10,685 nt of DNA from Nitrospirales bacterium. GTDB taxonomy: Bacteria > Nitrospirota > Nitrospiria > Nitrospirales > UBA8639. This document shows positions 2-10,685 of the stretch, in pieces. How positions within the stretch are numbered: position 1 is the stretch's first letter; every line of letters begins with the position of its first letter. The stretch lies in assembly GCA_029261305.1 (NCBI GenBank), contig JAJDBO010000306.1, positions 1 to 10,685 of the forward strand, read 5' to 3'. The notes beneath the pieces were generated by a model. That model was given only the letters and a program-made list of their open reading frames with translations, did no database searches and was not told the DNA's origin. The position numbers and the translations under genes were made by a program.

Positions 2-829
2 ACCGACATCTTTTTTCACCACTATTATCTAAGAAAATTTCGGTTTGATGAGGGGAAAGAAGAATCCGGCACGGTGTACGACGATCATATGTCGGGCTTT
101 TCGCACCTGCTAGCGCCCTCGCCGACAACAAGCGTTGGGGATTCAATGCCGACATCAGATGTCCAACCCTGGAACGCAGAGGCCTGGATCGCGCATGTGG
201 TGATGTCCTTCGAAAAAGCGGAACAGGGAGCATCACGCCTTTCCGATGAAGTCCTATCCATGGAGGGGATGTGTGGTACGTTCACCCGACACTTCTACAA
301 CAATATATGCAGCTTCGAGGGTTGTCGATACATAGAGATTGGAAGTTGGACCGGGGCGAGTTTATGCGCGGCCATGTTTCGCAATCATATATCAGCAGTT
401 TCTATCGATAATTGGTCCCAATTCGGTGGCCCCAAGCAAGTGTTTTTGGAGAATATTTCCAAATACAAAGGAAGTTGCCATCTCTCCATATTAGAGGAAG
501 ATTGCTTTGCCGTGAATACGAATGAGTTGGGAAGTTTTAATGTCTTTTTATATGACGGAAATCACAGTAAGGAAAGTCAGTATAAGGCCCTCCTGCATTA
601 TTATGATAACTTCGAGGACTATGCCATAGTAATTATTGATGATTGGAATTGGAAAGACGTGAGAGAAGGAACGAAAGAAGCGATGGAGAAACTGAACATG
701 TCAGTCATATTTGACAAGGAAATTTTTTTGTGCGAAGACGATGTGAAAGAGATGCCCAGGCACAAGGGCAAGCATACATGGTGGAATGGAATCTATGTGA
801 TGCTTATTCACAAGGGCGAACCATCATGA
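2..829 (+). CDS. Class I SAM-dependent methyltransferase, probably the C-terminal part of a larger protein (5' partial)
   Basis: Likely transfers a methyl group from S-adenosylmethionine to a sugar or small acceptor; the acceptor is unknown. Numbering from the GTG at 74, motif I is YIEIGSWTG (86-94), the acidic end of strand 2 is SIDNW (110-114), and later strands are VFLYDGNHS (157-165) and IVIIDDWNW (186-194), a Rossmann methyltransferase pattern. The frame is open without a stop from base 2. The upstream residues (TDIFFHHYYLRKF) resemble the HYYHDLKDG segment of the PqqD-glycosyltransferase at the right edge, so the methyltransferase may be fused to a glycosyltransferase that starts outside the window. 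Internal starts are possible at 74 (GTG), 89 (ATG) and 146 (ATG, preceded by a GGGG tract); none has a strong ribosome-binding site. It converges with the sulfotransferase, only 20 bp away. Methyltransferase fold: fairly sure. Fusion: inference. Confidence 0.75.
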   Translation, partial: TDIFFHHYYLRKFRFDEGKEESGTVYDDHMSGFSHLLAPSPTTSVGDSMPTSDVQPWNAEAWIAHVVMSFEKAEQGASRLSDEVLSMEGMCGTFTRHFYNNICSFEGCRYIEIGSWTGASLCAAMFRNHISAVSIDNWSQFGGPKQVFLENISKYKGSCHLSILEEDCFAVNTNELGSFNVFLYDGNHSKESQYKALLHYYDNFEDYAIVIIDDWNWKDVREGTKEAMEKLNMSVIFDKEIFLCEDDVKEMPRHKGKHTWWNGIYVMLIHKGEPS

Positions 830-849
830 TATCGAAAAAAGACTACATA

Positions 850-1548
850 TCAGGTCGTGGTGTGTTTCTGGTTGCACGTAATGGCATCGTTCACGATGCT
901 CCCTCCGATATCAGGATTCGCATTCATGGCTTCAACGACATGGGCGACCAAGGCGACGTCTTTGGGATATAAATTTTGGATTATAGACGTCATCAGGTCA
1001 TCAACATGGTCAATGTAGAATCTACTGTATTCGTAAATGGACGCTCTCCCTTCTCTGCTTCTTCTTTTCGGAAGTGGTGTGTAGTCAGGAATCCCCAGCC
1101 GATCGTATACATAGGTCATACTCCGGTCGAACGCTTCAACCGTGCCTAGGAAGTCTAATCTTTTATCACGGATATGGTCGTGCTGGTCGATGATGTGGGG
1201 ATCCCACTTCTGACGTTTGACCTCGGACAAAAACGTCAGGAAGCGTTCCTGATTGTCAGGCATAGCAAAGAACGATGGGTCATTCGCGAATGATTCTTGC
1301 CCATCTTTCCGCATGGAAATCTACTGATACGCGGACAGAAGCCGTGTCACAGGGTCTCGGAGCAGTGCAAAAATAAAATAGGTGTTCAGTTTGTCTGTTT
1401 CAATATGATCAAATCCGCATTCATAAGATTGATAGGAAGGCTGGCGAAATTCAGCTCTCAGCGTAGATGTCGCGTTCTTGGCAATTAGAATGCAGATGAA
1501 TTTATACCGATCTGAAACCACACATTGAGGATTCACCGCCTGCTCCAT
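850..1548 (-). pseudogene. Sulfotransferase (Sulfotransfer_2-like) interrupted by one in-frame TAG codon
   Basis: Family members move sulfate from PAPS to a carbohydrate hydroxyl. The N-terminal piece (1548-1321, 75 residues) holds both PAPS-binding motifs: the 5'-phosphosulfate loop in ILIAKNATSTLR (20-31) and the 3'-phosphate motif in LLRDPVTRLLSAY (62-74). It then meets TAG at 1321-1323. The frame continues unbroken through I-S to the ATG at 1314 and on for 154 residues (SMRKDGQESFAND onward) to the stop at 850. The two pieces are therefore one gene of about 231 residues split by a single codon, with no frameshift. A one-base change from GAG or CAG would create it. Re-initiation at 1314 would give a product without PAPS motifs. 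Amber suppression or a sequencing error are alternatives. No clear ribosome-binding site precedes 1548, and a palindromic element starts 4 bp upstream, so the native N-terminus may have been longer. It is last in the minus-strand operon. Confidence 0.75.
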
Positions 1549-1732: not shown

Positions 1733-1823
1733 CAGACCCATAGACGCGGTTCGCGGTGCGAATTTTCTTTTCTGATATCCATATCAGTCTGAGCTGTCAT
1801 GACGCTATCGCACGATTGAATTC
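1733..1823 (-). repeat. Operon spacer repeat, copy C (after the FkbM-malectin gene)
   Basis: Read on the minus strand, this segment runs from GAATTCAATCGT through CAGACTGATATGGATATC to a purine-rich tail. It aligns with the spacer after the tandem glycosyltransferase (copy B), sharing GAATTCAATCGT, CAGACTGATA and similar downstream bases. It covers the last codons of the FkbM-malectin gene and the start of the gap before the sulfotransferase. A short reading frame from the ATG at 1800 stops after 23 codons and is not called a gene. Confidence 0.55.
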
Positions 1824-3130
1824 GCAGAGCTCAAGGAGCTAGCTGGATTGGGTCCGCCCGCTTCATCGACTGGAACGATCTTGATACCGCTGACCATCGC
1901 ACTGTTGCGCGAGGCGCGAAGCTCAATTGTAAGACATCCTCCAGACACCGTCGCCGTGTAGGTTTTCACCAGTGGAGTGGCAAATCCGACTTCGTCGAAG
2001 ACATCGAGATCGCGTTCAACGATGGTCTTCTGAATCGAAATGTCAAAGACCCGCACACCCAATCCCCGGGCACCTTCCCAGACCTCCGCGAAGTAGAGCG
2101 AAACGTTGTAGTCACCGTCTGGCATCTGCGATCGAAAGCGCAGTGCAGGCTCGTAGGTGGACGCGTAACGCACGTGCTGGAATAGATCATTTTCTTCCGT
2201 TCCCTGAATGGCCCACTTGACGTAGAATAGGTTTCCATTGGTGAAGCCCGTGTTGGCGCCGGAGAAGCCCTGATCGGGAAGGAAAATGTCTCCCTGGTAG
2301 GCTGCGGGCTCCATGCTGCCGGCGGTTATCAATATCCGCTCGCATGGGTCTGCAAGCGGAGAGCGATCGCGATCAACTGCAATTTGACCCTCGAGCTGGA
2401 TCGAAGAACACTCCATCATCGTTCCGACTTTTTCGTCTTCATCTGGAACTCGATAGCAAAGAAAGTCCTCGCCAAACTCCCTGTAGGCATAGGACCGATC
2501 CCCCAGCTTCCGTAACAGACTGACGTTCTCTTCAATGGACATAACCTTGTGCTCATACACGATCATCTCTGGAGACGCTATCTCGAGAAATGCGCTCACG
2601 ATTTCGCCATCGAATCCTTCGACATCGGTGATCAGAAGATTCAACTCTCGTGGACTGATGCCGGCAAAGCTCAGAAAAGTTTCTGGTGAAATACACTGTA
2701 CGTTGTCCGCCCGTATGTACTCCTCCGGGATATGCAATCTCAGATGCTCGTTGGTCAACGACCCAATTTTGTATTTTCGCCAGGGCTGGGCATCAGGCTG
2801 GTCCAGGGCGAATTGCTCTGACACCGAATAGAAGGTTCGAGTCTCGTCTCTTCCACCGATCGCAAAGTTATAACACGCCACATGATCAGAATAGGGTTCC
2901 ATGACCTGAAGCAGATCGTCATGCAACCGGCCAACGGCCTCGACAAGATGCGCTCTCACATGTTGTTGGCCTGTGATAATCCTCTGTGGCAGATCGTCCT
3001 CAGGCTTGCCGTTGCACGCGCCAATTTGAATGGCTGTCAGAATCTTCTGTTGAGAGCCATAGTGATCGACGAGGACTTGGATGGCAGCGGGGATGCCGGA
3101 TTGAGAGAAGATTTGCCCTTGGAGGTTCAT
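1805..3130 (-). CDS. FkbM-family methyltransferase fused to a malectin-like carbohydrate-binding domain
   Basis: A 441-residue two-domain protein. Residues about 30-230 are FkbM-like: AIQIGACNG (33-41) as the SAM loop, HLVEA (61-65) where the family has an acidic strand-2 end, and LITDVEGFDGEI (166-177) with MIVYEH (189-194) as the later conserved strands. FkbM enzymes O-methylate sugars or polyketides. Residues about 265-420 match malectin: ILITAGS (266-272), a GFSGANTGFTNGN stretch (288-300), YNVSLYFAEVW (341-351) and a closing VSGIKIVP (413-420). Malectin domains bind glucose-type oligosaccharides, so this domain may hold the glycan being methylated. An upstream ATG at 3226 would add 32 residues and overlap the glycosyltransferase by 38 bp. 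That stretch is spacer DNA which reads as linker in another frame, so the ATG at 3130 is preferred. No strong ribosome-binding site is seen at either. Third in the minus-strand operon. No signal peptide. Confidence 0.82.
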   Translation of the reverse strand: MNLQGQIFSQSGIPAAIQVLVDHYGSQQKILTAIQIGACNGKPEDDLPQRIITGQQHVRAHLVEAVGRLHDDLLQVMEPYSDHVACYNFAIGGRDETRTFYSVSEQFALDQPDAQPWRKYKIGSLTNEHLRLHIPEEYIRADNVQCISPETFLSFAGISPRELNLLITDVEGFDGEIVSAFLEIASPEMIVYEHKVMSIEENVSLLRKLGDRSYAYREFGEDFLCYRVPDEDEKVGTMMECSSIQLEGQIAVDRDRSPLADPCERILITAGSMEPAAYQGDIFLPDQGFSGANTGFTNGNLFYVKWAIQGTEENDLFQHVRYASTYEPALRFRSQMPDGDYNVSLYFAEVWEGARGLGVRVFDISIQKTIVERDLDVFDEVGFATPLVKTYTATVSGGCLTIELRASRNSAMVSGIKIVPVDEAGGPNPASSLSSANSIVR

Positions 3131-3141
3131 GGTGGAGATGC

Positions 3142-3242
3142 TCCAGAAACGCGTTTTGTGCCGCGACTCTTCTTTGCCGATTTCCCTATCAGTCTGTGCC
3201 GATTGACACGTCACTGGCAGGTTCATGTAAACGATTGAATTC
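3142..3242 (-). repeat. Operon spacer repeat, copy B (end of the tandem glycosyltransferase)
   Basis: On the minus strand it begins GAATTCAATCGT and contains GGCACAGACTGATAGGGAAA. In the glycosyltransferase frame it reads D-V-S-I-G-T-D, stop, stop, G-N-R-Q-R-R-V-A-A-Q. The residues after the stops match the inter-domain linker in copy A (G-N-R-Q-W-S-V-A-E-Q). Copy B therefore has 9 extra bases, with TGA and TAG, relative to copy A. Confidence 0.65.
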
Positions 3243-5309
3243 CTCGAAGGTCAAGCAGTGCTCCCAATCCTGTTCGGTTTTGATGGTAACCGGGTCTGGA
3301 GTCTCACCGGTAAACACGTCTGGATGGGCTGTTTTGTTCCTGAAATCCATCCCGGCATAAATTTCGTAGTCCCGTATGGAGCGTTGTTGCCCAATCCCAT
3401 ATGGTCCTAATTGGCGATGCGCGTCTGCCTCATCGCTGTAGAGCAACCATCTTAGACGCTCGAAGGCAACGCGATTCTTCTCCTGCACCACTTCTTGGCC
3501 ATTTTCCCAGTGGCGTCTTGGCGGAATCGGATGCATCTGATGCCAGGCCACAATCTTTTGCGGCAAAAAAAAGTCATAGCCGTGGGTGAAAGAACGTACG
3601 GTCAAATTGAGCTCTTCCCCATGGTAGTAATGTTCTGGGTCCTGCGGAACCTCTATGTTCCATTTTCCCAGGGTGAACACAAAATTGCCGGAAATAAACC
3701 GGTTGCGACCCGGGCTTCGGGTATTGGGTGAACCCCAATCAAACCACGGGGCCCAACCGTCACTAGGCCCCCAACTGTTCACTCGAGTAGTCCGAATTCC
3801 TAGGTAGGTTTGTCGATGTAGACGCCCGTGAGCGTCGTACCAAAACAGTGGGGCATTCACCGTGATCAACGGTTTATCACTCGGTAACGATTGAATCATG
3901 CGGATTAAGGTTTCGTCCCAGGCCGGCTCAAATTTCATATGGGAGTCAACCTGTAACGTATAGACTTCCCCATCCCAGAAGCGTTGCGCCATGGACCGCG
4001 CCCAGGTGCCGCCCTGACTTTCTTCAATCCGATAGTTCAGGAAGCGAAACCGTGGATCACGCTGAAACGTGGAAACATCTACCGGATTGTGATCGTCGTA
4101 TTGCCAGCAGATGCCAAAGCGTAACCGGTCAGGATATTGGGCATTGCTAAGACAATCCTCCAATGTTCGGGGCAGATCCGGATCACAGTACGAGGCGATC
4201 GACACAAAGATACGCGGTCGAGTACTTGAACTCGGAACCGTCTCGGATATTGGTTGGGTTTGTTCTGCGACGCTCCACTGTCGATTTCCTGAGCCGATTG
4301 ACACGTCAGTGGCACTCGCCTGCTTACGCTCGTATGCCTCGAAGGACAAACAGTGCTCCCAGTCTTGCTCGGTTTTGATCGTGACCGGGTCTGGGGTCTC
4401 CCCAGTAAACACGTCCGGATGGGCGGTTTTGTCCCTGAAATTCATCCCGGCATAAATTTCATAGTCTCGTATGGAGCGTTGTTGCCCAATCCCATATGGA
4501 CCTAATTGTCGATGCGCATCCGCATCCTTGCTATAGAGCAACCAGCTCAGCCGCTCGAAGGCGATACGATTTTTCTGCTCCACCACCTCGTGTTCATTGT
4601 CCCCATGGCGTCTTGGCGGTATTGCGTGCATCTGATGCCAAGCCACAATCTCTTGCGGCAAAAACAAGTCGTAGCCGTGTGTGTAAGAGCGCACGGTTAA
4701 ACTAAATTCTTCCCCCCAGTAGTAATGCTCAGGGTCCTGCGGAACCTCTGTGTTCCATTTTCCCAAGGTAAACACAAAACCGCCGGAAATAAACCGGTTA
4801 CGACCCGGGTTTCGAGTATTGGGTTTGCCCCAATCAAACCATGGGGCCCAGCCGTCAATGCCATCCCAACCGTTCACTCGGGTAGTCCGAATTCCCAGGT
4901 CGGTTTGTCGCTGGAGATGCCCTTGAGGGTCGTACCAAAACAGCGGGACATTCACCGTGATCAACGGTTTATCACTCGGGAACGATTGAATCATGCGGAT
5001 TAAGGTTTCGTCCCAGGCCGGCTCAAATTTCATATGGGAGTCAACCTGTAACGTATAGGCTTCCCCATCCCAGAACCGTTGCGCCATGGACCGCGCCCAG
5101 GTCCCACCCTGACTTTCTTCAATCCGATAGTTCAGGAAGCGAAACCGTGGATCACGCTGAAACGAGGTGACATCAACGGGGTGCTGCACGTCGTATTGCC
5201 AACAGATGCCAAAGCGCAACCGTTCAGGATATTGGGCATTGCTGAGACAATCCTCCAATGTTCGGGGCAGATCGGGATCACAGTACGAGGCGATCGACAC
5301 AAAGATGCG
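3189..5309 (-). repeat. Intragenic tandem duplication, period 1095 bp
   Basis: The two glycosyltransferase domains are encoded by direct copies at 5309-4284 and 4214-3189, exactly 1095 bp apart with no length change between codons 53-391 and 418-756. The segments 3886-3963 and 4981-5058 are identical over 78 bp, while other parts (for example the linker-proximal ends) differ clearly. That patchwork points to gene conversion or uneven selection after duplication. Confidence 0.9.
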
Positions 5310-5465
5310 CTGTCGGGTGTTTGAGGTGGAGGCGGTGTTGGAAAGTGTTTGGGACGTTATTGTCGGCGTGACCCCATTCTTCAAGGCTTCGAGTTGAGAA
5401 ACCCGGTGACGCAAGTTCTGCAACTCGGCAAGGAATTGCGCCTGAAAGGTTTCCTGGTCACTCAT
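3189..5465 (-). CDS. Tandem-domain Skp1-GlcNAc-transferase-type glycosyltransferase (PF11397-like)
   Basis: A 758-residue protein with an N-terminal coiled coil (about 6-28, AELQNLRHRVSQLE) and two copies of one catalytic domain at 53-391 and 418-756. Each opens with RIFVSIASYCDPDLPRTLED, then carries GICWQYD, YRIEESQGGTWARS, a VDSHM acidic motif (D142 in copy 1) followed by KFEPAWDE, NRFISG and a late AWHQMH. This pattern fits the GlcNAc-transferase family typified by Dictyostelium Gnt1, which adds GlcNAc to hydroxyproline on Skp1. The copies differ at about 50 of 339 positions (about 85% identical), and both keep the visible motifs, so both may be active. No signal or membrane segment is seen, so it probably acts in the cytoplasm. 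It starts 30 bp after the 2OG oxygenase; the ATG at 5465 has only a weak GGGG tract upstream. The coiled coil resembles the N-terminus of the Thr/Pro-rich protein at 8977. Family: fairly sure. Acceptor: inferred. Confidence 0.82.
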   Translation of the reverse strand: MSDQETFQAQFLAELQNLRHRVSQLEALKNGVTPTITSQTLSNTASTSNTRQRIFVSIASYCDPDLPRTLEDCLSNAQYPERLRFGICWQYDVQHPVDVTSFQRDPRFRFLNYRIEESQGGTWARSMAQRFWDGEAYTLQVDSHMKFEPAWDETLIRMIQSFPSDKPLITVNVPLFWYDPQGHLQRQTDLGIRTTRVNGWDGIDGWAPWFDWGKPNTRNPGRNRFISGGFVFTLGKWNTEVPQDPEHYYWGEEFSLTVRSYTHGYDLFLPQEIVAWHQMHAIPPRRHGDNEHEVVEQKNRIAFERLSWLLYSKDADAHRQLGPYGIGQQRSIRDYEIYAGMNFRDKTAHPDVFTGETPDPVTIKTEQDWEHCLSFEAYERKQASATDVSIGSGNRQWSVAEQTQPISETVPSSSTRPRIFVSIASYCDPDLPRTLEDCLSNAQYPDRLRFGICWQYDDHNPVDVSTFQRDPRFRFLNYRIEESQGGTWARSMAQRFWDGEVYTLQVDSHMKFEPAWDETLIRMIQSLPSDKPLITVNAPLFWYDAHGRLHRQTYLGIRTTRVNSWGPSDGWAPWFDWGSPNTRSPGRNRFISGNFVFTLGKWNIEVPQDPEHYYHGEELNLTVRSFTHGYDFFLPQKIVAWHQMHPIPPRRHWENGQEVVQEKNRVAFERLRWLLYSDEADAHRQLGPYGIGQQRSIRDYEIYAGMDFRNKTAHPDVFTGETPDPVTIKTEQDWEHCLTFEEFNRLHEPASDVSIGTD
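4256..4340 (-). repeat. Operon spacer repeat, copy A (in-frame linker between the two glycosyltransferase domains)
   Basis: On the minus strand it contains GACGTGTCAATCGGCTCAGG then AAATCGACAGTGG, aligning with copy B except that 9 bases are absent. It reads D-V-S-I-G-S-G-N-R-Q-W-S-V-A-E-Q and joins domain 1 to domain 2 without a stop. Confidence 0.65.
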
Positions 5466-5495: not shown

Positions 5496-6104
5496 TCATG
5501 TCTGGGGTGGCAAGAGGGTCCAACCGACCGGAGTATAATGCACGAACATGGACGCGTAATACTCACCTTCTAAGGGATACGGCCTGGCATGCTTCAACTT
5601 GGCGCTTTCGTAGAAGATCATATCGCCGGGCGACATTGAAATTTCGTGGGCCTTGCCGTGTATATCTTCGATATAGAATGGCCATGGCTTGTCGAGTTTG
5701 TAATCAATGCATATGGATGAGCTGATCACATGGGTGTCAATAGTATCAACATGAGAATAGAGATAGCTTCCCCGCTGGCACACGCGTATGCCGTAACACG
5801 ACGCATTGATTAGCGGCAGGTTACACCACTGTTCATGAATCGGCCTTAACGCCGTGAGCAGGTTGGCATTAAACGCCTGATCTTCATAAAGGAGGGACGT
5901 GACGGAGCGCCTGTCAGTGGTATGCAGATACTTGTGATCATCATCGATAGATAATTTTCCGGTATTGTTGACGAACTGCTTCAGGAGTTTCACGTAGATA
6001 TCAGGATCAAGTCGGGCTTTCCGGAAGCCTAAGCCATGGTAGGGTACCCGAGCTTGCTGTTGAATAGTCAGTTCATCGAGATCCTGTGGCGTCTGACAAA
6101 ACAT
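5496..6104 (-). CDS. 2-oxoglutarate/Fe(II) dioxygenase, prolyl-4-hydroxylase-like
   Basis: A 202-residue cytoplasmic protein expected to hydroxylate a peptide or small substrate using O2, Fe(II) and 2-oxoglutarate. The iron-binding triad is visible: H118-x-D120 in LYSHVDTIDTHV and the distal H172 in ESAKLKHARPYP. They lie on a double-stranded beta-helix pattern with a MSPGDMIFYES strand (157-167) and a closing EYYASMFVHYTP (181-192). In known prolyl hydroxylases a Lys or Arg about 9-10 residues after the distal His binds 2-oxoglutarate; here those positions are E181 and Y182, so the anchor is missing or has moved (R174 is the nearest candidate). The ATG at 6104 is supported by GGGAGGTGGAGAA directly upstream, and a promoter lies 58 bp away. 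It is first in the minus-strand operon, 30 bp before the Skp1-type glycosyltransferase, which suggests a hydroxylate-then-glycosylate pair. Confidence 0.85.
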   Translation of the reverse strand: MFCQTPQDLDELTIQQQARVPYHGLGFRKARLDPDIYVKLLKQFVNNTGKLSIDDDHKYLHTTDRRSVTSLLYEDQAFNANLLTALRPIHEQWCNLPLINASCYGIRVCQRGSYLYSHVDTIDTHVISSSICIDYKLDKPWPFYIEDIHGKAHEISMSPGDMIFYESAKLKHARPYPLEGEYYASMFVHYTPVGWTLLPPQT

Positions 6105-6442: not shown

Positions 6443-6709
6443 AAAATGTCAGCAGGCTGGTGTCGAATCCGGTCTGGTTTTTTAGTATGCCATTAGTATG
6501 TCAATGGGTAGTTCTATACCGCAGACTCTACCCCACCCGCATTCCCTCTTCGGAAATTGCGCCCAGAACAAAGGGGAGTGATAGACTGGCCTAGGTTTTG
6601 TAGTCAGATCCGACCGCAATTAAAAGGAATAGAAATTTGCATCGTTGAAACAGTACTGGCAAAATTCGCCACTTTCATTAGACCCTACAGACGTTTAAAT
6701 GACTTAATT

Positions 6710-8563
6710 ATGACAGACCTTCTCAATACCGATATTCGTTTTGTCTCAGCCCAACCGGACACGCCGCACTTTATCTGGCAATGCCATGTGTATTTGCACA
6801 ATTTTCTTGCCAAGGGCATCCAACCTCAACAATGCGTGGCTCTATTCAGTAGGGACCCTGCGCAAGAACCCAGTCCACAGCTTCGCAACCTGCAAAGCCA
6901 CTTTCCTGAGGTCGATATCCAGATCTACCCAGATACCCGTGATGCCGATGGTCAACGCTATACGGCATCAATTCAGCCGCATCTGATTGTCAGAGCCTAC
7001 GAGGAGTATCCGGATTGGAACGATCGCCTTATGTTCTTTCACGATGGCGATATCGTGTTCAGACGTCTGCCCAATTTCAATCATATGCTTCGAACTCATC
7101 CTGGCTGTTCTCTACTCAGCGATACCATTTCGTACATCGGGTATACCTACCTCCATGATTGCTGTGAAAAAATCAGACAGGAAAACCCGGCTCTCCCGCC
7201 GGATCATCTGCTGCAATGCATGGCTAATGTGGTAGGGATCGATATTGACGTGATCAAAGAGAACGAGCCGTGCTCCGGCGGGGCGCAATACTTATTGCGT
7301 GATGTCGATAGAGACTATTGGGAGAAGGTATATTACGATTCAGTCCAACTTGCCTCACTATTTAGATCCTATAACCGTCTCTACAACCTAAAAAATCCCA
7401 CTTCGGAATATATTCAAACGTGGACGGCTGGCATGTGGGCCTATTTGTGGAACCTTTGGTGGCGCGGTCACCGTACCGTGATCCATCAGGAGATGGATTT
7501 TCAATTCAGTAACGAATCGACAAATGAGAGCAAGACCATTCTCCATATGGCCGGTTTGCCCGATAAACTCAAAGCCACCCATTTTGACAAACAGGCTTGG
7601 GTCAATCGCAACCCCATAGACATCCTGAGTGCCCAACCGTTCCTGTTCGATCACATCCCGTTCCATACCGTGTCCCATGAATATATCAGTAATATCTGCG
7701 CGATCGTCGGCATCCAGCCCTATCGACAACGGAATTTGGTACCGGCCAAACATTGGCGTGTCCTAGCATGGCATACAGAAAGCACCTTTGCATGGGACGT
7801 AGAACGATGCCAGTTTTATACTGAGAAAGAAGAATTGCAGGGTATCCCCCTAGAGTCCGGAAATGCCGGTGCCGGCTATGATGTGATCAATGCCTGGGAT
7901 GCGAATCCAACCACATACTGGGGCGGACGTCAGCATTCTAATGGACATCCCGCACCCTACTTTTTCCTTGGCATGACCTTCGACAAAGCCTATCTGCCGG
8001 GACATGTCACGATTACGCAACGAGAGGGACCGCATCGTGCAGAACGGGTGCTCCTTCAATACAGCCAGAACGGCACAGATTGGCAAACCGCCATCGTAAC
8101 CAATTTAACCCCAACCCCCGGTGCGCAGACCCTCCTCTACCGCTCAGCGGAAGTCGTCCAAGCCCGACAATGGCGCGTGCGGACAGCGCACACCTCGACA
8201 AGCTGTTGGGATATCCACCGATTAGCCTTCCTGCATAATCACCAGGAGCAGACGGGTACACCGTTTTCTTCGGGATGCCCATTTCCCGACGATCTGTCGA
8301 TGTACGGTCACCAATATGCCTTCGAAGATGCAGATGGGCATTGGGGCGGACGACCAGATGCACACGGACATTTCTATGTCGGAATAACCGGCACCGCGCC
8401 CATATCCGTGAACCATCTGATCCTGGCACAACAGTCACCTCAACACTGTGCGACCGAGAGTGAGATTCAATGCAGTGATGATGGCGTCACATGGCAAACC
8501 CTCAAAACAGTTTGCGATCTGCATAGTGGCATCAACCACATCTATCTGTTTGACTCGGCCTAA
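6710..8563 (+). CDS. Glycosyltransferase with two C-terminal discoidin (F5/8 type C)-like domains
   Basis: A 617-residue protein. The N-terminal half (about 8-340) looks like a GT-A glycosyltransferase: IRFVSAQPD opens it, RLMFFHDGDIVFRRLP (106-121) holds the acidic D112-G-D114 metal/nucleotide-sugar motif, and CSGGAQYLL (188-196) and WTAGMWAYLW (238-247) follow. The layout loosely recalls plant hydroxyproline arabinosyl- and serine galactosyltransferases, but that link is tentative. Residues about 348-480 and 488-615 are a repeated discoidin-like module, each with an opening W-R-V, a W-D-V/I, a later W-G-G-R and a DGVTWQT/NGTDWQT strand; such modules bind sugars. The frame is open back to a TTG at 6557. 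The ATG at 6710 is chosen because the domain starts just after it, but it has no clear ribosome-binding site. No signal peptide. It is divergent from the oxygenase operon and upstream of the Thr/Pro-rich protein. Confidence 0.78.
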   Translation: MTDLLNTDIRFVSAQPDTPHFIWQCHVYLHNFLAKGIQPQQCVALFSRDPAQEPSPQLRNLQSHFPEVDIQIYPDTRDADGQRYTASIQPHLIVRAYEEYPDWNDRLMFFHDGDIVFRRLPNFNHMLRTHPGCSLLSDTISYIGYTYLHDCCEKIRQENPALPPDHLLQCMANVVGIDIDVIKENEPCSGGAQYLLRDVDRDYWEKVYYDSVQLASLFRSYNRLYNLKNPTSEYIQTWTAGMWAYLWNLWWRGHRTVIHQEMDFQFSNESTNESKTILHMAGLPDKLKATHFDKQAWVNRNPIDILSAQPFLFDHIPFHTVSHEYISNICAIVGIQPYRQRNLVPAKHWRVLAWHTESTFAWDVERCQFYTEKEELQGIPLESGNAGAGYDVINAWDANPTTYWGGRQHSNGHPAPYFFLGMTFDKAYLPGHVTITQREGPHRAERVLLQYSQNGTDWQTAIVTNLTPTPGAQTLLYRSAEVVQARQWRVRTAHTSTSCWDIHRLAFLHNHQEQTGTPFSSGCPFPDDLSMYGHQYAFEDADGHWGGRPDAHGHFYVGITGTAPISVNHLILAQQSPQHCATESEIQCSDDGVTWQTLKTVCDLHSGINHIYLFDSA

Positions 8564-8633
8564 GGTCGTACAAAAGGTAACTCGGTGACAATTTTTTACA
8601 ATTCTGTCGGTTTTCCATTCCACCTGATGGTCT

Positions 8634-8745
8634 AAATCCGAAACTCGAATATCGAAATCCGAAACCAATGTTAAAGACCAAATTTAAACATCCGAATTTA
8701 GGATTTCGAATTTGTTTCGGATTTCGATATTCGAGTTTCGAATTT
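8634..8745. repeat. 32-bp inverted repeat with AT-rich 48-bp centre
   Basis: The left arm (8634-8665) and right arm (8714-8745) are reverse complements with one mismatch over 32 bp. Their core is CTCGAATATCGAAATCCGAA and its complement. The centre (8666-8713) contains further short versions of the same TTCGAAT/ATCCGAA words, so the element is built from a simple motif. Similar motif-rich elements occur in several bacterial phyla (from memory). No T-run follows, so it is not an obvious terminator. Confidence 0.85.
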
Positions 8746-8928
8746 ATGGAACGTATTTTGAACGACAATACTAATCACTCCCTGGAAGTTAAACCCACCT
8801 TTATCCTTAATGATTATCCTATTTTATTGACAACATTTGCTGAACAAGATATAGAATCACAACTTTTGCTTACGACTCGATATCATCAAGAGTCAGGTCG
8901 TGGGGTAAATGAGTTTCGCCGCGTTTAA
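8746..8928 (+). CDS. Possible small protein of 60 residues, unrecognised
   Basis: An ATG directly abuts the right arm of the inverted repeat and opens a 60-residue frame (MERILNDNTNHSLE at the start, GRGVNEFRRV at the end) that stops 48 bp before the Thr/Pro-rich gene. It is acidic to neutral, has no signal peptide or membrane segment, and matches no family I know. It lacks a ribosome-binding site, is AT-rich, and a good promoter for the next gene lies inside it. It may be a gene remnant or a chance frame in a leader region. A longer version from 8668 would read through the inverted repeat and is not believable. Confidence 0.2.
   Translation: MERILNDNTNHSLEVKPTFILNDYPILLTTFAEQDIESQLLLTTRYHQESGRGVNEFRRV
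8827..8855 (+). promoter_or_regulatory. Sigma70-like promoter for the Thr/Pro-rich protein
   Basis: A perfect TTGACA (8827-8832), a 17-bp spacer and TATAGA (8850-8855; 4 of 6 consensus bases). It would give a leader of about 115 nt before the ATG at 8977, probably carrying the PqqD-glycosyltransferase on the same transcript. Confidence 0.55.
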
Positions 8929-8976: not shown

Positions 8977-9573
8977 ATGAGCGATGCAGACAAGACCTCT
9001 GAAGAATTGATGGCTGAATTACGTGCGCTCCGCCAACGCGTTGAGGAGTTAGAGACCACAACAGGATCTCAGCAGACCCAGGCATCATCGATCGAGAATA
9101 CAGTCGACGCCGCTCAATCAGAACCTTCTAAAATATCTAAATCTGATATAGGTTTGACCAAACGTGATCTTCTTCATGTCAGTTGGGTCGCGCCAGTGAT
9201 TCTCACCGTGAATCTGCCCATGTCGGTTTTTGCGCAAAGCCAAGGCAGTCCAGGACCGAATCCGAATCCAGGCACCACACTACCACCGGTTCCGGCGCCA
9301 GTGCCCACGACGACCAGGACAACGCCTACCAAGAGACCCACTATGTCCCCCACGACGACCGTAGTGCCGACAAAGAGTCCCTCAGTGACCACCACCACGA
9401 CCACCACCACTAAAGCGCCCACGACCACCACTGCAGCGCCCACGGGCACGACTACCACCACCGATGCCCCGACCACGACCACAGCCAAGCCCACGTTTAA
9501 GCCTACCCCCTCCCCAACGCAGCCCACCAACATCCCAACGGCCGCACCTACGTTCGTGCCCACACCAGGGTAG
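8977..9573 (+). CDS. Secreted or surface Thr/Pro-rich, mucin-like protein with an N-terminal coiled-coil leader
   Basis: A 198-residue protein in three parts. Residues 8-27 (SEELMAELRALRQRVEELE) form a coiled coil, followed by a polar stretch to 60. Residues 61-86 look like an internal signal: TKRDLL, then a hydrophobic WVAPVILTVNLPMSVFA core, with likely cleavage after A86. TKRDLL weakly resembles a Tat motif with KR for RR. Residues 100-198 are low complexity, with 42 Thr and 22 Pro in 99 residues, as in heavily O-glycosylated or hydroxyproline-rich surface proteins. There is no catalytic domain, cysteine or C-terminal anchor. AGGAGA (8967-8972) stands 4 nt before the ATG and makes the start secure. 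The PqqD-glycosyltransferase begins 7 nt after the stop, indicating co-expression. The coiled-coil header resembles that of the tandem glycosyltransferase (5465-3189). Being the acceptor of the local enzymes is inference. Confidence 0.8.
   Translation: MSDADKTSEELMAELRALRQRVEELETTTGSQQTQASSIENTVDAAQSEPSKISKSDIGLTKRDLLHVSWVAPVILTVNLPMSVFAQSQGSPGPNPNPGTTLPPVPAPVPTTTRTTPTKRPTMSPTTTVVPTKSPSVTTTTTTTTKAPTTTTAAPTGTTTTTDAPTTTTAKPTFKPTPSPTQPTNIPTAAPTFVPTPG
9274..9570 (+). repeat. Low-complexity Thr/Pro coding tract
   Basis: Repeated ACC/ACG codons separated by CCC and GCC, including runs of eight (138-145), four (149-152) and five (158-162) Thr, with recurring K-A-P-T, A-A-P-T and D-A-P-T steps and a K-P-T/P-T-P end. 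Short-unit repeats like this change length easily by slippage. Confidence 0.8.
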
Positions 9574-9580
9574 CTAACGG

Positions 9581-10685
9581 ATGGGCACCGATGCTGAAGA
9601 CCAACTGGCTCTAACAGCCCAACAGATGGTGCGTCCCACGAGGCGGCAGTGCATTCAGGAGGTTGATGTTCGGGATGACCTGACCCTCCTCGCCGCTCCA
9701 GGTGACCAAGGCATCACCCTTAACGCCTCCGGCAGGGCCATCTGGGAATTGTGCGATGGCCAGCATACCATCAACGACATGTTTCGTGAGTTGAGTCACC
9801 GCTATGCATGTGAAGATGTCGATCTTTTTGCCGACCTCACTGCCACCCTGCTCAGATTCCAGAACCTCAAGCTGATCGAGATGAGCGGTGACGAGATCAC
9901 CAACAGCTCGTCGGTGAAGTTTGTCGTCGGCATTGAAGACACCACGTATTTTCACTGGCAACTGCCCATCTTATGTGAATCCCTCAGCACGCTGCCCCCA
10001 GGATGGGAACTTCTCGTAGTGGTGTGCAATAACCACGCCCCGCTATCGGAAACTCTGCAGCATATTGTCGACACGTATCCGGTGCGCTATTTTACCGGCA
10101 GCGATCACCCATCTAATGAAAATATGGATTTCGCCGATGGGGGCGATCGTTACGTACCGATTAATCGCATCGAGGCCCTCCATATGATTGCCGACCACGT
10201 TGATGAAGACGATATGGTGTGTCTGATGGATACCGATATCTTCCTCTATCGAGAACTCAATCCGTCTGTTTTCCCCCAACGAAATGCGCTATGCGCGAAT
10301 TGGCTCATTGCTCAGGATCGCTTTTTCACGGAAAGGCCCCCCACCAAAGGGATTCACCTTCCCACGTTATTGGCATCGATGGGCTGTTCGCATGCCTTCA
10401 AGCCGGGCGGAGTCCTGGTCTTTCTCACGGGCCGGACCGTGAAAAACCCAAAATTCATTCAGGATTGCGTCCGGTTTACCCAGGTTCTGTATTTACTCGG
10501 GAAGATTATCGAGGTGCCAAAAACCTGGATAGCCGAAATGCCGTGTTTTGCCCTGGCGCTGACGGCCAACGGCATTGACTACGACCTCCTCGACGTCCCT
10601 GAATTTGTTCCTCACCACCCTTGGGAAGAGTCGATTACCCCAGGCAGTTTGTATCATTACTATCATGATCTTAAAGATGGGGGGG
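9581..10685 (+). CDS. PqqD-like domain fused to a DxD glycosyltransferase (3' partial)
   Basis: The frame is open for 368 codons to the window edge. Residues about 17-101 match the PqqD fold: PTRRQCIQEVDVRDDL, then a GITLNASGRAIWELCDGQ core (44-61), TINDMFREL and a final helix. PqqD proteins are winged-helix RiPP recognition elements that bind leader peptides. Residues from about 111 are glycosyltransferase-like: VKFVVGIEDT and LLVVVCNNHAP strands, then VCLMDTDIFLYREL (213-226) with the D217-T218-D219 sugar-nucleotide/metal motif, and LYHYYHDLKDG at the edge. That last segment resembles the frame running into base 2 of the window, hinting at a related protein there. The ATG lies 7 nt after the Thr/Pro-rich gene, with only weak ribosome-binding bases, so translational coupling is likely. 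The PqqD domain may recruit that protein's N-terminal leader for glycosylation, which is inference. Confidence 0.8.
   Translation, partial: MGTDAEDQLALTAQQMVRPTRRQCIQEVDVRDDLTLLAAPGDQGITLNASGRAIWELCDGQHTINDMFRELSHRYACEDVDLFADLTATLLRFQNLKLIEMSGDEITNSSSVKFVVGIEDTTYFHWQLPILCESLSTLPPGWELLVVVCNNHAPLSETLQHIVDTYPVRYFTGSDHPSNENMDFADGGDRYVPINRIEALHMIADHVDEDDMVCLMDTDIFLYRELNPSVFPQRNALCANWLIAQDRFFTERPPTKGIHLPTLLASMGCSHAFKPGGVLVFLTGRTVKNPKFIQDCVRFTQVLYLLGKIIEVPKTWIAEMPCFALALTANGIDYDLLDVPEFVPHHPWEESITPGSLYHYYHDLKDGG

What the first reader, a model, noticed from the sequence alone, without database searches (positions are those of the whole stretch)
8977..10685. Candidate substrate-modifier pair: Thr/Pro-rich protein and PqqD-glycosyltransferase fusion
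A mucin-like protein with a long cytoplasmic N-terminal leader is followed 7 nt later by a glycosyltransferase carrying a PqqD domain. PqqD-type domains bind peptide leaders in RiPP pathways. A PqqD domain fused to a glycosyltransferase next to a leader-bearing Thr-rich protein suggests leader-guided O-glycosylation before export, a use of PqqD I do not know as described.
Basis: partly seen in the sequence, partly recalled or inferred. Interest (0 to 1): 0.8.

Follow-up and report, generated by a model that had tools for sequence, protein, structure and literature searches.

The report
Leader-guided glycosylation of Pro/Thr-rich protein
A bacterial gene pair encodes an exported proline/threonine-rich protein and a sugar-adding enzyme carrying a leader-binding PqqD domain, inside a gene set that in relatives resembles the plant extensin toolkit, which suggests that bacteria may build plant-like glycoproteins using the addressing system of peptide natural products.

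Summary
The pair is real: a 198-aa protein (coil, signal-like segment, 112-residue Pro/Thr tail) ends 7 nt before a PqqD-glycosyltransferase that leaves the window. The GT part is GT-A/GT8-like (model of a homologue); the PqqD part is nearest to lasso-peptide RREs. In all four loci read (window, L001-L003) such a leader protein precedes the PqqD-GT. Eighteen of 18 related leader proteins carry WxxPx[ILVM], the published RRE motif type; 0 of 102 signal-like ORFs of one host do. Ten of 165 PqqD-GTs carry it at their own N-terminus. In related loci PqqD is also fused to HPAT-family enzymes and, in one genome, a sulfotransferase, beside GT60-type and prolyl-hydroxylase-like proteins. Best reading: RRE-guided, mucin/extensin-like modification before export, with residues 70-75, not 1-60, as likely address. 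RRE-GT fusions are in print; this combination I did not find. Binding and chemistry are not shown.

The parts
8977..9573 (+). leader-bearing Thr/Pro-rich protein (198 aa), candidate substrate
   Evidence: ORF; same kind of gene directly upstream of PqqD-GT in L001-L003
8998..9060 (+). hydrophilic coil segment, residues 8-28
   Evidence: ELxALRxxVxxLE kept in the 4-sequence alignment; resembles N-terminus of the window's PF11397 protein, 0 of 2000 shuffles reach the score
9163..9234 (+). signal-like segment, residues 63-86 (RDLL-hydrophobic-VFA), predicted cleavage after A86
   Evidence: alignment; own rule-based detector finds it
9184..9201 (+). W70-V-A-P-V-I75, candidate RRE recognition motif
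   Evidence: 18 of 18 relatives carry WxxPx[ILVM]; published motif [Y/W]xxPx[L/V/I/F/A]
9235..9570 (+). Pro/Thr-rich tail, 112 aa, T 38% P 23%, 16 of 26 prolines preceded by A/S/T/V
9581..10685 (+). PqqD-glycosyltransferase, 3' end outside the window
   Evidence: ORF; homologues P0001 etc.
9695..9877 (+). PqqD (RRE) domain
   Evidence: PF05402 3.3e-9; family profile matches lasso RRE TbiB1 8.9e-9
9914..10684 (+). GT-A, GT8-like glycosyltransferase domain with D-T-D at 10229-10237
   Evidence: alignment; fold of homologue P0004
6557..8563 (+). protein with two F5/8-type C stretches and an unassigned N-terminal half (possible glycosyltransferase, by eye only)
   Evidence: PF00754 5.5e-10; no HPAT, profile or PDB match for the N-terminal half
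5496..6104 (-). putative dioxygenase-like protein; a homologue follows PqqD-GT in L001-L003 and is fused to the GT elsewhere
   Evidence: alignment with L001-L003, H118/D120/H172 invariant; fusions; 'dioxygenase' rests on the HxD..H pattern by eye; no Pfam or PDB match
3189..5465 (-). tandem GlcNAc-transferase-like protein (PF11397, GT60/Skp1 type), N-terminal coil
   Evidence: PF11397 3.4e-94, 4 stretches
1805..3226 (-). FkbM-type methyltransferase plus malectin domain
   Evidence: PF11721 1.2e-19; PF05050 4.2e-4, below cut-off
850..1548 (-). sulfotransferase gene with one in-frame stop; relative of a PqqD-sulfotransferase fusion in G003
2..829 (+). methyltransferase-like protein, 5' end outside the window
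   Evidence: PF13578 1.1e-6

Best explanation
The pair is a substrate and one of its modifying enzymes in an RRE-guided protein-modification pathway. The Pro/Thr-rich protein is made with an N-terminal coil and a signal-like segment containing WxxPxI. Step 1 (inferred): in the cytoplasm the PqqD domain of the glycosyltransferase binds the WxxPxI stretch as an edge strand, as lasso RREs bind their leaders. Step 2 (inferred): the GT-A domain glycosylates the tethered Pro/Thr tail, together with other cluster enzymes that in relatives carry their own PqqD (HPAT family, sulfotransferase) or not (GT60 type, 2OG oxygenase) and that may hydroxylate Pro and add further sugars or sulfate. Step 3 (inferred): release of the signal-like segment allows export by Sec or Tat and cleavage after VFA, giving a mucin/extensin-like exported glycoprotein. 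Shown here: gene order and conservation, domain identities, motif conservation, fold of the GT in a homologue. Not shown: binding, sugar, modified residue, export.
For: Conserved adjacency in 4 of 4 loci read. In 101 relatives of G003 the full PqqD-GT and the strong leader hits (E<1e-30) fall in the same 3 genomes, which are those the queries came from. WxxPx[ILVM] in 18 of 18 leader relatives and [WY]xxPx[LVIFA] in 0 of 102 signal-like ORFs from 400 kb of G003. PqqD profile nearest to TbiB1, then 9x8z (LppB), 5sxy, 9x90 (PbaB1) and others; LppB and PbaB1 bind Y/WxxP leaders, and TbiB1-leader complexes are solved. Ten of 165 PqqD-bearing GT homologues carry WxxPx[ILVM] N-terminal to PqqD (shuffle mean 0.27, max 2 in 500); in the model of one (P0004) residues 1-10 have mean pLDDT 87 and residues 8-12 are a strand although residues 25-52 are below 50. 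Three PqqD fusions lie near one another in G003: GT, HPAT, sulfotransferase. The GT is fused to the neighbouring dioxygenase-like protein in other organisms. Prolines follow A/S/T/V in 172 of 218 cases in 19 related tails.
Against: Only four loci could be read, two from closely related MAGs. The motif lies in a segment that must also work as an export signal, so its W and P might serve export; similar AW..PVI signal peptides in actinobacterial Tat substrates are recalled, not tested. In 31 of the 120 homologues listed no PqqD is annotated (some are fragments). The N-terminal motif is confined to few GTs, apparently one lineage, and may be a relic. The dioxygenase-like protein matched no known family and its model failed (pLDDT 50). 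G002 has a second leader protein without a GT beside it. G001 and G002 also encode PqqD domains elsewhere (about 110-aa stand-alone ones, L010 and L011, and one in L013), so the domain has other uses there. In the window itself no HPAT match and no PqqD on the sulfotransferase were found.
Confidence: 0.58

Rival explanations
1. The Pro/Thr protein is glycosylated by cluster enzymes, but recognition runs through the coil (residues 1-40) or the tail itself; PqqD serves assembly of the enzyme or another ligand, and the W-P residues belong to the signal peptide.
For: The coil is conserved in the leaders and resembles the N-terminus of the window's PF11397 protein (score 61, shuffle maximum 52 in 2000); the motif sits within a signal-like segment.
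Against: PqqD domains are fused to three different enzymes of one gene neighbourhood in G003; the motif matches published RRE ligands and is absent from 102 signal-like ORFs of that host.
Confidence: 0.2
2. The GT acts on a cell-surface polysaccharide or lipid-linked glycan; the Pro/Thr protein is an unrelated exported linker that is co-transcribed.
For: The neighbourhood is rich in sugar-modifying genes; GT8-type folds also occur in lipopolysaccharide enzymes such as LgtC (fold match; role recalled).
Against: Adjacency in 4 of 4 loci and a leader-binding type of domain on the GT are not expected of a glycan-only enzyme.
Confidence: 0.12
3. The product is a small secreted peptide (signal or antimicrobial), with the Pro/Thr tail as core, rather than a structural coat glycoprotein.
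For: In 17 relatives with a full tail (the truncated P0137 left out) tails are only 26-56 residues, like RiPP cores; HprK-like and NTP_transf_5 genes recall LPP and paeninodin clusters.
Against: The window's tail is 112 aa and low-complexity. By eye no dedicated peptidase or exporter stands out in the ORFs listed from the related loci (no family search was made, small ORFs were not listed, and an Opp/Dpp-like permease ORF lies at L003 19860-20819).
Confidence: 0.1

Closest known systems
Linear polyphosphorylated peptides (LPP) and paeninodin-type lasso peptide systems (PMC13381572; passages and section 6 read)
   Same: PqqD-type RRE; precursor with conserved N-terminal part holding [Y/W]xxPx[LVIFA] and variable C-terminus, 35-200 aa; HprK-like kinase and NTP transferase in the cluster (in the relatives); a signal-peptidase link
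   Different: Here the RRE is fused to glycosyl- and sulfotransferases instead of being discrete; oxygenase and extensin-type glycosyltransferase genes; tail Pro/Thr-rich; no lasso cyclase or SipW-type peptidase recognised by eye in the ORFs listed (no family search)
RRE-glycosyltransferase fusions (PMC7470986 section 10; PMC12710340 section 6)
   Same: PqqD/RRE domain joined to a glycosyltransferase
   Different: The 2025 paper names PF00535; the GT here has no Pfam family and is GT8-like; a substrate protein and pathway are proposed here
Plant extensin/arabinogalactan-protein glycosylation and Dictyostelium Skp1 hydroxyproline glycosylation (roles recalled; search listings only)
   Same: In the relatives: prolyl-hydroxylase-like oxygenase, HPAT (PF23452), PF11397 (GT60 type) and, in L003, PF03407 (GT77 type); A/S/T/V-P repeats in the tails
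   Different: Bacterial, presumably cytoplasmic, with RRE domains fused to some enzymes; activity and hydroxyproline not shown
PqqA/PqqD of PQQ biosynthesis
   Same: PqqD domain; PqqA starts MKWxxP (recalled), like the N-termini of P0004, P0007-P0009 and P0015
   Different: No radical SAM enzyme or PQQ gene recognised by eye in the ORFs listed; the candidate substrate is a larger protein

Membership tests
PqqD/RRE domain (PF05402) | profile match above curated cut-off | tested here: met
   37.4 bits against 23.4
PqqD/RRE domain (PF05402) | three-strand, three-helix winged-helix order | tested here: met
   model of homologue P0004: strands 69-73, 76-80, 86-90 (a further short one at 61-64) then helices 92-100, 107-117, 125-138; the window's own copy was not modelled
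PqqD/RRE domain (PF05402) | binds a leader peptide | not testable with these tools
   no complex prediction or assay available
RiPP pathway | precursor gene with conserved leader and variable core next to RRE-bearing enzyme | tested here: met
   4 of 4 loci read; leader conserved, tails variable
RiPP pathway | core modified and leader removed | not testable with these tools
   needs expression and mass spectrometry
LPP RiPPs | [Y/W]xxPx[LVIFA] in precursor N-terminal region | tested here: met
   window W70-I75; WxxPx[ILVM] in 18 of 18 relatives
LPP RiPPs | discrete RRE, SipW-type signal peptidase, MsbA-like transporter in the cluster | tested here: inconclusive
   none recognised by eye among the ORFs listed, but flanks are limited and no family search was made; stand-alone PqqDs of about 110 aa lie elsewhere in G001 and G002
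LPP RiPPs | HprK-like kinase and NTP transferase | tested here: inconclusive
   Hpr_kinase_C weak and below cut-off (0.027 in L001, 0.0037 in L003); PF14907 3e-32 in L001, 1e-35 in L003; not in the window proteins scanned
Extensin-like hydroxyproline glycosylation | HPAT enzyme (PF23452) | tested here: inconclusive
   met in L001, L002, L003 (6e-16, 3e-16, 9e-12); not found in the window proteins scanned, and the cluster may continue beyond the window
Extensin-like hydroxyproline glycosylation | prolyl 4-hydroxylase | tested here: inconclusive
   2OG-FeII_Oxy_3 protein in L001 and L003, weak match of the L003 one to a P4H subunit (0.008); the window has only an unassigned dioxygenase-like protein
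GT8 / LgtC-glycogenin fold | GT-A fold of this type | tested here: met

The most novel reading that the evidence does not exclude
Bacteria possess an extensin-like pathway in which hydroxylation, glycosylation and sulfation of a Pro/Thr-rich protein are steered by RRE domains that read a WxxPxI address hidden inside the export signal, so that RRE binding both recruits the enzymes and holds the protein back from export until it is finished.
Probability: 0.25. Interest if true: 0.88.

Novelty: new variant of a known kind. Interest (0 to 1): 0.72.

Why it matters
It would join two fields: RiPP leader recognition and protein O-glycosylation. RREs would then direct sugars and perhaps sulfate onto an exported structural protein, and hydroxyproline glycosylation, known to me only from eukaryotes (recalled), might have a bacterial counterpart. 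A six-residue address would make the enzymes easy to retarget in glycoprotein engineering and gives a direct test by point mutation.

Tried and rejected
Residues 1-60 as the PqqD-binding leader: not excluded, but the part shared with known RRE ligands is residues 70-75. GT domain as an HPAT relative: profile comparison aligned only the PqqD parts. Window 6557-8563 as HPAT: no Pfam, profile or PDB match. Dioxygenase identity: no match by profile or Pfam; the model had pLDDT 50 and was not used. Wider genome survey: the full PqqD-GT was found only in the starting genomes, 3 of 101 (a fourth, G006, matched in the PqqD part only), 1 of 398, 1 of 397, 1 of 385; HPAT in 1 of 299, again G003 itself; no plasmid match; viral contigs gave no relative. 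Weak leader hits (E 2.5e-4 to 0.0096) in 14 other genomes, 16 rows: 13 cover only the coil; 3 reach the signal part (G036, G022, G041), of which I looked at G036 alone: it is an 84-residue ORF without the proline, antisense to a 515-residue ORF (my note named the wrong overlapping gene). Contig-length matching between leader and GT lists: of 18 leaders, P0121/P0139 and P0124/P0141 share a longest-contig length and P0130's equals the L002 contig; the other 15 gave no match, but both GT lists show only their best 120 rows (of 187 and 164). P0023's N-terminus looks like a Pro/Thr gene read out of frame; its DNA was not seen, so it was not counted. P0020 has the N-terminal motif but fell outside the count. 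In that count 48 of 213 GT homologues were dropped for lack of a recognisable PqqD core.

Full report
Observation. The two genes are as described. ORF 8977-9573 encodes 198 aa: a hydrophilic coil (MSDADKTSEELMAELRALRQRVEELE), a KR-type signal-like segment ending VFA, and a 112-residue tail with 38% Thr and 23% Pro. After 7 nt, ORF 9581->10685 encodes at least 368 aa and leaves the window. Pfam finds PqqD at residues 39-99 (3.3e-9, above cut-off) and nothing in the rest.

Conserved pairing. A scan of genome contigs gave three loci: L001 and L002 (Rhizobiaceae MAGs) and L003 (alphaproteobacterial MAG). In each, the gene directly upstream of PqqD-GT is a leader protein of the same build (L001 272-646, L002 9533-9856, L003 9409-9765), 45-53% identical to the window's. 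The gaps are 12, 12 and 220 nt. In 101 relatives of G003, full-length PqqD-GT occurs in 3 genomes and strong leader hits (E<1e-30) in the same 3. The queries came from these genomes, so this is consistency, not an independent test. G002 also encodes a second leader protein away from the cluster (L024 1468-1830), which fits a substrate acted on in trans but shows that not every leader protein has its own GT.

The motif. A protein search with the L003 leader gave 18 proteins, among them the L003 leader itself (P0121), the L002 leader (P0130) and close kin of the L001 one (P0131, P0132). All 18 hold WxxPx[ILVM], as W[AV]AP[VI][IV]. PMC13381572 (passages and section 6 read) describes [Y/W]xxPx[L/V/I/F/A] as the motif recognised by discrete lasso RREs, places WxxPxL in the RRE cleft of PbaB1, and reports that changing the Tyr or the Pro of LppA reduced complex formation, while two other leader changes did not. 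PMC12710340 (passages and sections 6 and 7 read) gives W/Y/LxxP/L/I for groups with FusE, McjB, PqqD and StsC. As a control I called ORFs in 400 kb of G003: of 361 ORFs kept, 102 were signal-like by a simple rule of my own and 0 of these carried [WY]xxPx[LVIFA] in the segment; 14 of 361 carried the W form anywhere in their first 100 residues. The same rule detects 18 of 19 leader proteins (window and the 18) and finds the W motif in those 18.

A motif in cis. Of 213 GT homologues fetched, 165 have a recognisable PqqD core; 10 of them carry WxxPx[ILVM] before it (shuffles: mean 0.27, maximum 2 in 500), and 10 of the 14 with 40 or more residues before PqqD do. Examples start MKWIAPDIQTF or MRWETPAIQTF, like PqqA (recalled). 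In the model of P0004 this end is confident (residues 1-10, pLDDT 87; strand 8-12) although residues 25-52 are disordered, so the motif appears docked on the protein. This is suggestive of motif-RRE contact, not proof.

The surroundings. The window also holds a tandem PF11397 protein (GT60/Skp1 GlcNAc-transferase type; role recalled), a FkbM-malectin protein, a sulfotransferase gene with an in-frame stop, a protein with F5/8C domains, a methyltransferase and a dioxygenase-like protein. The three related loci add an HPAT-family enzyme (PF23452) with C-terminal PqqD (Pfam-tested in all three). Pfam-tested in L001 and L003 are PF11397, a 2OG-Fe(II) oxygenase, an O-FucT-like protein (below cut-off) with a weak HprK-like end, and NTP_transf_5; L002 has similar ORFs. 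L003 has a PF03407 protein upstream and G003 a PqqD-sulfotransferase about 10 kb from the PqqD-GT. The window's sulfotransferase is 40% identical to it over 195 residues; no PqqD was seen in the three frames 5' of the window's gene. Elsewhere the GT is fused to the dioxygenase-like protein (P0113, P0120, P0184 and others) or to PF03407 (P0221). Thus PqqD is attached to three different modifying enzymes of one neighbourhood in G003, which is what a shared leader-bearing substrate predicts. Other PqqD domains lie elsewhere in G001 and G002 (L010, L011, L013).

Substrate chemistry. In 19 tails (window, L024 and 17 relatives, several closely related) 172 of 218 prolines follow A, S, T or V, the spacing of arabinogalactan-protein modules (recalled). 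With HPAT, PF11397, PF03407 and a prolyl-hydroxylase-like protein (L003, weak match to a P4H chain, 0.008), hydroxyproline glycosylation is plausible in the relatives. In the window itself only PF11397 and the unassigned dioxygenase-like protein speak for it, so Thr/Ser glycosylation remains equally possible there.

Comparison. RRE-glycosyltransferase fusions are in print (PMC7470986 section 10; PMC12710340 section 6). The closest worked-out kind is the LPP/paeninodin group. My searches for PqqD or RRE with glycosyltransferase, hydroxyproline, sulfotransferase, Tat signal, HPAT and two Pfam accessions listed no paper on this pathway in the library held; subscription papers are largely absent from it and I saw only titles and abstract starts of the listed papers, apart from the three read in part.

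Verdict. A real and conserved pair, very probably substrate and enzyme; RRE recognition through WxxPxI is well motivated but unproven; novelty lies in the combination with an extensin-like toolkit and in the address lying within the export signal.

Noticed in passing
window 850-1548 (-): Sulfotransferase gene interrupted by one in-frame stop; disrupted gene or sequencing error. An intact relative exists fused to PqqD in G003 (L012 865-1797).
   Followed up: partly
window 5465 to about 5380 (-): N-terminus of the PF11397 protein resembles the coil of the Pro/Thr protein (score 61, 0 of 2000 shuffles): possibly a docking coil. The corresponding ORFs of L001-L003 start without it.
   Followed up: partly
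L024 1468-1830 (G002): Second leader protein with WxxP and Pro-rich tail, not beside a glycosyltransferase in the 3.2 kb listed.
   Followed up: partly
L001 2458-4662, L003 11758-13965: O-FucT-like domain (below cut-off) joined to a weak HPr-kinase-like domain.
   Followed up: no
window 8532-8928: Both strands encode repeated FGFRYSSF-type peptides just upstream of the pair; looks like a short degenerate DNA repeat rather than a gene.
   Followed up: no
window 6557-8563 (+): F5/8C-bearing protein with an N-terminal half that by eye resembles a DxD glycosyltransferase but matches nothing.
   Followed up: partly
P0023, P0011, P0016: P0023's N-terminus looks like a Pro/Thr gene read in another frame; P0011 and P0016 carry leader-like WVAPEIL segments fused ahead of PqqD.
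   Followed up: partly
L010 1480-1806, L011, L013 506-1768: Further PqqD domains elsewhere in G001/G002: stand-alone ones and one joined to an HprK-like protein by eye.
   Followed up: no
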